Below are positions 10,142 through 37,802 of a DNA stretch of 64,000 nt, piece after piece; the stretch's first letter is position 1, and the number at the start of each line of letters is the position of its first letter. The stretch is from Thermobrachium celere DSM 8682 (GTDB taxonomy: Bacteria; Bacillota; Clostridia; Clostridiales; Caloramatoraceae). The stretch is taken from the NCBI RefSeq assembly GCF_000430995.1, contig NZ_HF952018.1, forward strand, positions 1,244,449 to 1,308,448. The letters run 5' to 3'. The position numbers were made by a program, and so were the translations under genes. The notes below the pieces were generated by a model. It was given only the letters and a program-made list of their open reading frames with translations, was not told where the DNA came from and did no database searches.

Positions 10142-10738
10142 TTATACAATTTCCTTTACAAAATTATATATAATTTTAGCTGTAATTCCCCATATTATTT
10201 TATCACCATATTCATAAAAATAAATTGGACTTCTTGCTGTAAGAAGCTTTGGTTTTATTTTAGTAAATTTATGATCATTTTCAAAGTTTGCGTTTATAGT
10301 TGCATAATACATTTCGGGAGGTGTATTTTTAAAAAAATTAATCGGAACAAAAAATAACTCATCTACTTCGTCATAAGATGGTACAAAATCTGTCTTTTTA
10401 ACCAATACTACAAAAACATAAATTATCTTACCATGATAAGTAACCAAGGTATCAAATTGCCCTATATATTCAAAATCATCTTTTTTTAATCCAACCTCTT
10501 CCATAAACTCCCTAAATGCTGCCTCTTTAGGTTCCTCTCCCTCTTCAATCTTTCCTCCAGGTAATGAAACATCTCCAGGCTGAAACTTTAATTTTTTTGA
10601 TCTTACCTCAAACAATACCTTTAACTCATTATCATAAACCAATGGAATTACAACAGAATACCTTTTGAACTCCTCATCTTGACCTATAATTTTAATTTCT
10701 CTATTTTGAAATATTCCTTTTATAGAATTTATATCCAT
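10142..10738 (-). CDS. Nudix hydrolase, CoA-pyrophosphatase (NudL/YeaB) type
   Basis: Splits a nucleoside diphosphate linked to another moiety, probably coenzyme A or a derivative. The 198-residue protein has the Nudix box GGKIEEGEEPKEAAFREFME-EVG with its REXXEE helix, preceded by FQPGDVSLP; RSKKLKFQPGDVSLPGG is the UPF0035 signature linked to CoA diphosphatases. The frame can start at a TTG at 10756, but GGGGAG lies 8 bases before the ATG at 10738 (MDINSIKG), which is preferred. It lies upstream of the amidohydrolase on the same strand. Other Nudix substrates cannot be excluded. Confidence 0.82.
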   Translation of the reverse strand: MDINSIKGIFQNREIKIIGQDEEFKRYSVVIPLVYDNELKVLFEVRSKKLKFQPGDVSLPGGKIEEGEEPKEAAFREFMEEVGLKKDDFEYIGQFDTLVTYHGKIIYVFVVLVKKTDFVPSYDEVDELFFVPINFFKNTPPEMYYATINANFENDHKFTKIKPKLLTARSPIYFYEYGDKIIWGITAKIIYNFVKEIV

Positions 10739-10804
10739 AAAAATTTCTCCCCTCAAATTGGAAAAATAAATGTATAATTCTAGTTTATTTAAGATATAAT
10801 ATTA

Positions 10805-10833
10805 TTGTCAAATATATTCAGAAATGTTATAAT
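10805..10833 (+). promoter_or_regulatory. sigma-A type promoter of the zinc-ribbon gene
   Basis: TTGTCA (10805-10810), a 17-base spacer and TATAAT (10828-10833). Transcription should begin near 10840, exactly at the start of the structured leader. Confidence 0.8.
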
Positions 10834-10840
10834 AATTAAA

Positions 10841-10929
10841 AAGGAGATTTAACCATCAAGACCCCCTATAAATTGATAGGGTTGTGTCTTTGAGTCGTTA
10901 AATCCTATCATTTATAGGAGGTGTGTTCA
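10841..10929 (+). promoter_or_regulatory. structured 5' leader RNA with sequestered ribosome site
   Basis: About 90 bases between the promoter and the ATG fold into nested helices: 10847-10853 with 10897-10903 (7 bp), 10857-10862 with 10886-10892, and 10864-10869 with 10876-10881. A second hairpin, 10904-10908 with 10914-10918, overlaps the ribosome site AGGAGG (10916-10921). Segment 10865-10880 can pair instead with 10904-10918 over about 15 bp with one bulge, so two exclusive folds exist that expose or hide the ribosome site differently. The sequence matches no riboswitch class I can recall. Control by temperature, a protein or a ligand is inference. Confidence 0.6.
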
Positions 10930-11094
10930 ATGGCTGACAAGAACTTAGTTTGCCAAGACTGCGGTAAGGATTTCGTTTTCACTGAAGGCGAACAAAAATT
11001 CTACGCAGAAAAAGGCTTTGAAAACGAACCAAAAAGATGTCCTGACTGCAGAAAGGCAAGAAAACAACAAAAAAGAAATTTTGACAGAAGATAA
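10930..11094 (+). CDS. small zinc-ribbon protein
   Basis: A 54-residue protein with two CxxC pairs (VCQDCG, Cys8/Cys11; RCPDCR, Cys37/Cys40) around FVFTEGEQKFYAEKGF, and a strongly basic tail (RKARKQQKRNFDRR). This is the probable zinc-ribbon (zf-trcl-like) family, which also occurs fused or linked to cold-shock domains. A nucleic-acid or ribosome-associated role is likely but unproven. AGGAGG lies 8 bases before the ATG, inside a hairpin of the leader. It has its own promoter and terminator, so it is a one-gene transcript. Codon use looks like that of a well-expressed gene (lysine, glutamate and cysteine codons are less AT-biased than in neighbours). Confidence 0.9.
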   Translation: MADKNLVCQDCGKDFVFTEGEQKFYAEKGFENEPKRCPDCRKARKQQKRNFDRR

Positions 11095-11118
11095 GGGAGA
11101 GTTAAACTCTCCTTTTTT
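11095..11118 (+). terminator. Rho-independent terminator
   Basis: Stem 11096-11101 with 11107-11112 and a TTAAA loop, then six T. It starts one base after the zinc-ribbon stop codon. Confidence 0.88.
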
Positions 11119-11133
11119 ATTTATCTGTAAATA

Positions 11134-11667
11134 CTATACAATAGGATATTTTTTATATTCATCATCATAAAAATGCCACCATTCACTTTCTATCCTTTTA
11201 AATCCACTCTGTACCATTGCTTTAGCTAAAAGTTCTCTATTTTTAACCGCATTTGCTGAGCAGTCATTATAGTATATACTTGCCTTATATGTAAAATCAT
11301 CAAAGTCTGTAGGCATTTCAACCTCTTCACCATTTAGTTTAACTAAAGTCACATCTACTGCTGCTCCTCTATTGTGAATAGAACCTCTCCATGGTGGAGC
11401 TATAAAATTTTCATCTTTGATTTGATCCCACATGAGTTTTTGAACAGACAGTGGCCTGTAAGCATCCCAAACCTTTAATCTATATCCTAAGTTCATTAAA
11501 AGCTCGTTTGCTTTAATCAATTTTTTAGTTGTGCCATATCTTAATATACATATATTATTTTCGTAAAATCTTTTTTTAAAATAATTTCTATCGGTTGCAT
11601 ATCTAATATCAAATAAAATTTCATTTGTAATTTCAGATACATCTACTAAATCAAAATCATCAAACAT
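11134..11667 (-). CDS. D-Ala-D-Ala dipeptidase, VanX/DdpX family (cytosolic)
   Basis: Peptidase family M15D, cleaving the D-alanyl-D-alanine dipeptide. All VanX catalytic marks are present in the 177 residues: Arg71 in DAYRP, the zinc site SIHNRGAAVD (His98, Asp105), and the general base and third ligand in ESEWWHF (Glu162, His165). There is no signal peptide, so it acts in the cytosol. The frame can open at a GTG at 11676, but the ATG at 11667 fits the AGGGGTGG ribosome site better. It stands alone; there are no vanH, vanA or vanRS genes nearby, so cell-wall recycling or dipeptide catabolism is more likely than glycopeptide resistance. A secreted relative lies at 39071. Confidence 0.9.
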   Translation of the reverse strand: MFDDFDLVDVSEITNEILFDIRYATDRNYFKKRFYENNICILRYGTTKKLIKANELLMNLGYRLKVWDAYRPLSVQKLMWDQIKDENFIAPPWRGSIHNRGAAVDVTLVKLNGEEVEMPTDFDDFTYKASIYYNDCSANAVKNRELLAKAMVQSGFKRIESEWWHFYDDEYKKYPIV

Positions 11668-36811: not shown

Positions 36812-37491
36812 CCCCTTTCTAATTCTCGCAATTTTTTTAAGAATTCATTCTCCAATTGTAATCTGCGATTTTGAGCTTCTAATAGCTTCTTTTCTGCTTT
36901 TAATTTTTCTATTTCAGACATTTCATTAATTGACTTTCTCTTACCTCTTTTATCTTGTAAGGCTTCAACTCCACCTTTTTCATACTTTTCAAGCCATCTA
37001 CGAACTTGTTGATATGATACATTGTATTTTTTAGCTGTTTCTTTATAATTATGGTTATGCTCAACACAATATCTAACTATATCTACTTTTTGCTCAAAAG
37101 AAATAGTAGTTTTTTTGGTCATAATAGTTTTTCCCCCTGTCCTTTTTTTAGAGAGTTTAATCCCCTTATGACCATTATACTTCTTAATCCAACTCTGTAA
37201 AACACCATAAGAAGAAATATTATATTTTGAACATATCTCAAATTGAGATAGAGTGCTATTGAAATAATCTTCAACAGCCTTTATTTTTAATTCTGCTGAA
37301 TATTTTTTATTAGAATCTTTAATTATTAACCCTTTTGCTCCTTCTACTTTATATTTCCTTACCCAATTTAAAAATACTTTCTTATTTACACCAATCTCAC
37401 GACATATTTGTTTTGCTGTCTTAATATTATTTAAATATTCTTCAACACTTTTAAGTTTTATATCAAAATCGTATACGCCTTTCTTTCTCAT
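36805..37491 (-). CDS. IS3-family transposase OrfA (helix-turn-helix protein)
   Basis: A 228-residue DNA-binding half of the transposase. It contains three helix-turn-helix-like repeats (TAKQICREIGVNKKVFLNWV, SQFEICSKYNISSYGVLQSW and NYKETAKKYNVSYQQVRRWL) and a C-terminal leucine-rich coiled coil (EIEKLKAEKKLLEAQNRRLQ). This long OrfA is typical of the IS150 group. The frame continues upstream to 37608, past the IS end, but GAGGAG lies 9 bases before the ATG at 37491, which is the start. It binds the terminal repeats and forms the fusion with OrfB. Confidence 0.9.
   Translation of the reverse strand: MRKKGVYDFDIKLKSVEEYLNNIKTAKQICREIGVNKKVFLNWVRKYKVEGAKGLIIKDSNKKYSAELKIKAVEDYFNSTLSQFEICSKYNISSYGVLQSWIKKYNGHKGIKLSKKRTGGKTIMTKKTTISFEQKVDIVRYCVEHNHNYKETAKKYNVSYQQVRRWLEKYEKGGVEALQDKRGKRKSINEMSEIEKLKAEKKLLEAQNRRLQLENEFLKKLRELERGW
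36832..36838 (-). promoter_or_regulatory. programmed -1 frameshift site (A7) of the IS
   Basis: On the minus strand, A-AAA-AAA is in the right phase for slippage (TTA AAA AAA TTG in OrfA). The -1 frame is open from here through the OrfB ATG, giving an OrfAB fusion. A 6-bp hairpin (CATAGC-GTTA-GCTATG) follows about 30 bases on. Confidence 0.65.
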
Positions 37492-37559
37492 AAAAATATA
37501 CTCCTCTCTATGGTAAACAGGTTTTACATTTTTAATCTGTCTACCATAAAGGGAGCATA

Positions 37560-37802
37560 TCAAATAATAAGAGCCCCTATAAAATCTGCTAAAAATCCAA
37601 ATCCCCAAACCTTAAGTATGTTTTGTTTGTAGAAGCTTTTTAAATTAAAACCAGACTCTTTAAGTTTAAAGGCATAAAAACAAGCAAGAATTACAAGCGA
37701 ATCAATAGCATAATTTCCAACTAATGTTATAATTATAAGCGGTGGTAGAAACATCAACATCCATAGTGGAAAAATAATGTTATAAAGCTTTACATTCCTC
37801 AA
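37560..37802 (-). pseudogene. membrane protein gene truncated by the IS element
   Basis: 80 residues remain, with two to three hydrophobic segments (YNIIFPLWMLMFLPPLIIIT and NYAIDSLVILACFYAF) and then ILKVWGFGFLADFIGALII. The stop codon TGA is the first three bases of the IS end, so the protein is cut in a helix and the gene once ran further. I recall a clostridial family of membrane proteins with the same KLYNxIFP...KVWxxGFxADFIG pattern and about twice this length. No continuation is found beyond the other IS end, so the 3' part seems lost. It starts at a TTG with AAAGGGG 7 bases before it. Confidence 0.75.

What the first reader, a model, noticed from the sequence alone, without database searches (positions are those of the whole stretch)
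10841..10929. Undescribed two-state leader RNA in front of a 54-residue zinc-ribbon gene
A strong promoter places the transcript start at the first base of a compact structure: three nested helices, then a small hairpin covering the AGGAGG. Segment 10865-10880 can instead pair with 10904-10918 over about 15 bp. Either fold changes access to the ribosome site. The gene has its own promoter, leader and terminator, the layout of an autoregulated or environment-sensing RNA. The family is linked to cold-shock proteins, so a thermosensor or binding of the zinc-ribbon protein to its own leader is a reasonable guess.
Basis: partly seen in the sequence, partly recalled or inferred. Interest (0 to 1): 0.65.

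Follow-up and report, generated by a model that had tools for sequence, protein, structure and literature searches.

The report
Two-state RNA leader, zinc-protein gene
The mRNA of a tiny, highly conserved clostridial zinc protein begins with a conserved RNA that can fold in two mutually exclusive ways, one leaving the ribosome-binding site free and one burying it, so it is very probably an undescribed on/off control of translation, although what flips it is unknown.

Summary
The two folds are at the stated coordinates and are conserved far beyond this genome (Caloramator relatives). In leaders of homologous zf_Tbcl (PF13451) genes, the anti-ribosome-site segment and the ribosome-site region co-evolve: own duplex mean -19.1 versus -12.8 kcal/mol when swapped between species, and 88 of 100 leaders beat shuffles. 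The competing nested hairpin also covaries (170 both-side-changed cells versus 63 in shuffles). A covariance model finds the leader in 98 of 194 genomes of the order; 128 of 130 inspected hits lie at a zf_Tbcl gene. No Rfam family matches the clostridial leaders tested. It is a new family of cis-acting translational leader. The trigger is not shown. Predicted folding shows no temperature crossing: the site stays sequestered from 20 to 70 degrees, so a simple equilibrium thermometer is unlikely. Context points to the cold-shock/RNA-folding/ribosome area: DEAD-box helicase genes within 1.5 kb in 27 of 168 loci, cold-shock and hibernation-factor genes in a few, and raiA RNA directly upstream of distant homologs. 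Candidates are co-transcriptional (cspA-like) folding, autoregulation by the zinc protein, or an unknown ligand.

The parts
10805..10833 (+). promoter: TTGTCA, 17 nt, TATAAT (extended -10); start of transcript about 10840-10841
   Evidence: 11 of 12 consensus matches; consensus match only, no mapped start
10846..10853 (+). P1 5' arm GATTTAAC
   Evidence: GATTTAA about 95% conserved per base in 102 leaders
10856..10862 (+). P2 5' arm TCAAGAC
   Evidence: fold; P2 pairs change on both sides in relatives
10864..10881 (+). apical hairpin CCCTAT-AAATTG-ATAGGG of state A; contains the switching segment 10865-10880
10865..10880 (+). switching (anti-Shine-Dalgarno) segment, pairs with 10904-10918 in state B
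10886..10893 (+). P2 3' arm GTCTTTGA
10897..10904 (+). P1 3' arm GTTAAATC
10904..10921 (+). ribosome-site segment CCTATCATTTATAGGAGG (AGGAGG at 10916-10921), target of the switching segment
10930..11094 (+). 54-aa zf_Tbcl (PF13451) zinc protein gene
11093..11115 (+). intrinsic terminator (10-bp stem, T-rich tail)

Best explanation
A cis-acting bistable 5' leader controls translation of the zinc protein. State A is a nested hairpin (P1 GATTTAAC/GTTAAATC, P2, apical hairpin) that is complete before the ribosome site is transcribed and leaves that site free or nearly free (ON). In state B the apical segment of that hairpin pairs with the ribosome-site region over about 15-25 bp and buries the Shine-Dalgarno sequence (OFF). 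B is predicted to be the more stable, so the RNA should start ON and relax to OFF unless something holds A or opens B. Shown here: both folds, their conservation and covariation, and near-exclusive linkage to zf_Tbcl genes. Inferred: the ON/OFF assignment, the order of folding, and translational control. Guessed: the trigger. I think most likely a cold-shock or translation-stress condition acting through co-transcriptional folding and RNA chaperones/helicases, as for E. coli cspA mRNA (about 0.35); next, binding of the zinc protein itself (about 0.3).
For: Anti-SD pairing beats 95% of shuffles in 88 of 100 homolog leaders, with quite different sequences. Own switching segment and own ribosome site fit better than swapped partners: residual -6.3 kcal/mol against permutation sd 0.34 (84 non-redundant leaders). 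State A: 83% of cells paired versus 37-49% when slid, 170 both-side-changed cells versus 63 shuffled (the alignment was fitted to this structure); hairpin arms fit their own partner better, -10.6 versus -7.6 (38 leaders). CM hits in 98 of 194 genomes of the order, 128 of 130 inspected at zf_Tbcl genes. Conserved in Cloacimonadota and a Fischerbacteria genome. The paralog in the same genome (89% identical protein) has a different leader sequence with the same layout. Context: DEAD-box helicase genes within 1.5 kb in 27 of 168 loci.
Against: No expression or probing data. B is predicted more stable than A by 6-8 kcal/mol in the window leader at 20-65 degrees, so a strictly equilibrium RNA would be permanently OFF; a trigger or kinetic trapping must be assumed. 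Paralogs of cold-adapted species with other leaders (L080, L096, L104) and L045 and L028 show no anti-SD signal. The P1 sequence is more conserved than pairing alone needs, which a purely structural switch does not explain. The DEAD-box count is not corrected for relatedness of the species.
Confidence: 0.7

Rival explanations
1. Autoregulation: the zinc protein binds its own leader (P1/P2 or the ribosome-site helix) and stabilises the OFF or disrupts the ON fold, as ribosomal proteins do with their leaders.
For: Leader found almost only at zf_Tbcl genes (128 of 130); P1 GATTTAA/TTAAATC conserved in sequence beyond pairing; protein small with a basic C-terminal tail and two CxxC pairs.
Against: The paralog with 89% identical protein has a leader without GATTTAA; distant homologs use raiA RNA or unrelated leaders; RNA binding by the family is unknown; no PDB fold match.
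Confidence: 0.3
2. Temperature-responsive leader of cspA type: at low temperature the co-transcriptional ON fold persists, at growth temperature it relaxes to the OFF fold.
For: Gene neighbourhood with DEAD-box helicases, and csp and hpf in L265/L268; E. coli cspA mRNA likewise has a translated cold form and an occluded 37-degree form (PMC9947658).
Against: No crossing of the two states at equilibrium in the model; the opening cost of the ribosome site falls with temperature on average (6.7 at 5 to 3.6 kcal/mol at 65 degrees, 183 leaders), the direction of a heat rather than a cold sensor. Leaders are present in thermophiles and psychrophiles alike.
Confidence: 0.3
3. Riboswitch for an unknown small molecule or ion (for example zinc) recognised by P1 and the internal loops.
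For: Strong sequence conservation of P1 across phyla; possible pseudoknot of P1 with the anti-SD helix: in 42 of 62 leaders the helix loses no more than 3 kcal/mol if P1 stays intact.
Against: Internal loops are poorly conserved; one gene family only, whereas metabolite riboswitches usually serve several genes of a pathway; no Rfam match.
Confidence: 0.1
4. Not a switch: a 5' hairpin for mRNA stability plus a constitutive brake on translation.
For: State B dominates in prediction; the 5' end lies in or close to P1.
Against: Covariation of the two mutually exclusive helices at the same time is hard to explain if only one is used.
Confidence: 0.15

Closest known systems
E. coli cspA mRNA thermosensor (Rfam RF01766)
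   Same: two alternative folds of the mRNA, one with the SD sequence accessible, one with it occluded; gene context with cold-shock functions
   Different: no sequence or model match; 90-nt leader outside the coding region; no predicted temperature crossing
raiA RNA / ModT (RF03072)
   Same: stands directly upstream of zf_Tbcl genes in distant Bacillota (six loci); the same genome holds one elsewhere
   Different: about 200-nt trans-acting ncRNA with a pseudoknot core; the window leader does not match it; raiA is far more conserved
Autogenous leaders of ribosomal-protein genes
   Same: leader tied to one gene family, hides the ribosome site, short conserved helix
   Different: binding by the product not shown; no known family matches
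Translational riboswitches with anti-SD switching (e.g. preQ1, SAM-II)
   Same: SD sequestered by a segment released by an alternative fold
   Different: no conserved ligand-like core in loops; ligand unknown

Membership tests
RF01766 cspA thermoregulator | match to the covariance model | tested here: not met
   no hit in the window; the only weak hit is over a csp gene in L265
RF01766 cspA thermoregulator | temperature-dependent change between the two folds | tested here: inconclusive
   no equilibrium crossing; kinetics not testable here
RF03072 raiA RNA | match to the covariance model | tested here: not met
   no raiA hit at E up to 5 for 10700-11150, while true raiA scores 198 bits elsewhere in the same genome
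cis-acting SD-sequestering translational leaders (general kind) | two mutually exclusive folds, one covering the SD, conserved by covariation | tested here: met
cis-acting SD-sequestering translational leaders (general kind) | effect on translation | not testable with these tools
   needs a reporter
autogenous (product-binding) leader | found only with one gene family | tested here: met
   128 of 130 inspected CM hits at zf_Tbcl genes
autogenous (product-binding) leader | protein binds leader RNA | not testable with these tools
   no binding data
PF13451 zf_Tbcl (gene) | score above the Pfam gathering cut-off, four cysteines | tested here: met
   91.3 bits versus 24; cysteines invariant in 39 homologs

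The most novel reading that the evidence does not exclude
A previously undescribed, widespread class of bistable mRNA leader (Clostridiales, Cloacimonadota and at least one other phylum) that times or gates production of a conserved zinc protein belonging to a cold-shock/ribosome-hibernation network with DEAD-box helicases and raiA RNA; several unrelated leader RNAs, raiA RNA among them, serve the same gene in different lineages.
Probability: 0.45. Interest if true: 0.75.

Novelty: new member of a known kind. Interest (0 to 1): 0.6.

Why it matters
It is a phylogenetically supported RNA control element absent from Rfam, in front of a gene family that is present in about two thirds of sampled genomes of the phylum (78 of 119) but in none of 14 control model genomes, hence apparently unstudied. 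The two helices make exact, testable predictions. The link of zf_Tbcl to DEAD-box helicases and to raiA RNA gives a lead on what both this protein and raiA RNA may be doing.

Tried and rejected
RNAalifold on the sequence-only alignment predicts no structure, because the two leader types are shifted by sequence alignment; replaced by a hand-structured covariance model and an alignment-free swap test. Column-based pair counting of state B is only moderately above controls, for the same reason. Rfam hits at E up to 5 in the window are chance matches. Extra CM hits in the own genome (C32:768114, C32:1633560) lie inside coding sequence and are rejected. L236 is a chance hit; L232 precedes a prophage gene. 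Equilibrium thermosensor: no crossing. Transcription attenuation: the only terminator-like element in the leader (10864-10881) lacks a real U run. Structure of the protein: AlphaFold mean pLDDT 86 but no PDB match at E 0.001. Literature searches found no paper on this leader or on the protein; one key paper on 224 candidate RNAs was not held.

Full report
WHAT IS THERE. The window is from a Caloramator-like genome (closest relatives). At 10930-11094 lies a 54-codon gene of the PF13451 zf_Tbcl family. It has its own promoter (TTGTCA-17-TATAAT, 10805-10833) and terminator (11093-11115), between a divergent NUDIX-type gene and a convergent dipeptidase-like gene (names from sequence features, not tested). 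State A: P1 10846-10853/10897-10904, P2 10856-10862/10886-10893, apical hairpin 10864-10869/10876-10881. State B: 10865-10880 with 10904-10918, covering the first half of AGGAGG. The MFE fold is state B, -25.7 kcal/mol, z -2.8. With the ribosome site held open, state A is found at -20.8.

IS IT MORE THAN CHANCE. In one sequence the evidence is moderate: the anti-SD duplex has z -4.8, and 3 of 207 other genes of the genome with intergenic upstream regions reach that. Homologs decide. One hundred distinct leaders of zf_Tbcl genes were collected from relatives and from a scan of 84,980 species. In 88 the ribosome-site region is complementary to an upstream segment better than at least 95 of 100 shuffles; the median z is -4.0 against a mean of -0.36 for ordinary genes of this genome. 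The sequences of the pairing segments differ: CCTATAAATTGATAGG/CCTATCATTTATAGG here, CTCCTCAATTTGGG/CCCAAATTTAGGAG in L015-L019, CAACATTCCTCTTTT/AAAAGGAGGAATGTTG in Clostridium, TCCTTTTTTTCGGGAT/ATCCCGAAAAAAACATAGGA in Cloacimonadota.

CO-EVOLUTION. To avoid alignment bias I paired every switching region with every ribosome-site region of 84 non-redundant leaders. Own pairs average -19.1 kcal/mol, swapped pairs -12.8; after removing row and column effects the own-pair excess is -6.3, and none of 10,000 permutations went below -1.5. The arms of state A (P1 left out) show the same in 38 leaders: -10.6 own, -7.6 swapped, excess -3.0 against a permutation minimum of -2.1. On the model-based alignment of 102 leaders, state A has 83% paired cells (37-49% when slid), 15 of 19 pairs with changes on both sides, and 170 such cells against 63 in shuffles; that alignment was fitted to the structure, so it leans towards it. 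State B counted on the same alignment, which was made without knowledge of B, has 74% paired cells (48-62% slid) and a covariation score of 0.224 against 0.190 in shuffles. Both mutually exclusive helices are therefore under selection. P1 is conserved in sequence as well: GATTTAA and TTAAATC about 95% per base, except one position with A-to-G changes that keep a U-G pair.

DISTRIBUTION. A covariance model finds the leader in 98 of 194 genomes of the order, 37 of 49 genera, at E 0.003 or better. Of 130 hits fetched, 126 hold a recognisable zf_Tbcl gene, one ends at a contig end at the start codon, one has a zf_Tbcl gene with masked bases, one precedes a prophage gene (L232) and one is a chance hit. 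In the own genome it is the only credible hit. More distant Bacillota lack it, but 15 of 29 sampled zf_Tbcl genes there (the window gene itself is one of the 29) have some anti-SD complementarity at p 0.05, and six have a full raiA RNA ending about 45 nt before the gene. The paralog in the own genome (C32:343381, 89% identical protein) has a leader of other sequence but the same layout (TTCAACATTCTCCT/AGGAGGAATGTTGAA).

MECHANISM. State A is nested and complete at 10904, 14 nt before the state-B partner is finished, so it should form first. State B is predicted more stable by 6-8 kcal/mol at 20-65 degrees. Over 183 leaders the cost of opening the ribosome site averages 6.7 (5 degrees), 4.9 (37) and 3.6 (65) kcal/mol. 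So the simple reading is ON while nascent, OFF when relaxed, with something that can hold or restore ON. There is no predicted thermal crossing, which speaks against a plain RNA thermometer in either direction, though kinetic trapping in the cold, as in cspA mRNA (PMC9947658), is not excluded. In 42 of 62 leaders the state-B helix keeps within 3 kcal/mol of its best energy without using P1 bases, so P1 may persist in both states and B may be a pseudoknot; in the window leader it costs 6 kcal/mol.

CONTEXT. DEAD-box helicase genes lie within 1.5 kb of zf_Tbcl in 27 of 168 loci, on either side, in several genera (not corrected for relatedness, a few loci may be the same site seen twice). A cold-shock protein gene and the hibernation factor gene hpf stand beside it in L265 and L268, and hpf in L252 and L256. 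DEAD-box helicases and csp genes were among the cold-induced genes of the clostridial species Acetobacterium bakii (PMC6239172). This makes a role in cold or translation stress plausible for the protein, hence for the leader. It is an inference from neighbourhood.

WHAT IS KNOWN. No Rfam 15 family matches the window leader or the leaders of 20 homologous loci. The paper library yielded nothing on this leader, with the limit that most subscription papers are not held. raiA RNA is known mostly next to comFC and raiA genes and acts in trans (PMC11706538, PMC11477304); its place directly before zf_Tbcl was not mentioned in the passages I read.

VERDICT. Observation confirmed; interpretation partly supported: a real, conserved, undescribed two-state leader; thermosensor reading weakened; autoregulation open. 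New family of a known kind.

Noticed in passing
L252, L253, L254, L256, L258, L263 (upstream of zf_Tbcl): raiA RNA (RF03072, 160-180 bits) ends about 45 nt before the zf_Tbcl start codon in distant Bacillota; L255 has a shortened, sub-threshold raiA-like leader (57 bits) and L249 ends with the same ACCAGGTCGGCTAAGC motif.
   Followed up: partly
27 of 168 zf_Tbcl loci, e.g. L002, L048, L065, L069, L109: DEAD-box RNA helicase gene within 1.5 kb of zf_Tbcl; csp and hpf beside it in L265 and L268.
   Followed up: partly
L232 / L246:2130-2230 (G083): Leader-like hit (41 bits, at the start codon) in front of a prophage-located LamG/Ig-like gene instead of a zf_Tbcl gene; chance or a borrowed element.
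   Followed up: partly
window about 37491-37580, minus strand: Very strong inverted repeat (CTCCCTTTATGGTAGACAG / CTGTTTACCATAGAGAGGAG, -36.6 kcal/mol, strongest of 207 genes tested) burying the ribosome site of a 228-aa ORF.
   Followed up: no
G000:C32:169277-169485: The own genome has a full raiA RNA (198 bits), separate from both zf_Tbcl genes.
   Followed up: no
L080, L096, L103, L104 (cold-adapted Clostridium): A separate zf_Tbcl subfamily whose upstream regions share ...AGTGTTAACATAATTAAATTGGAGGCAATTTTATA and show no anti-SD pairing.
   Followed up: no
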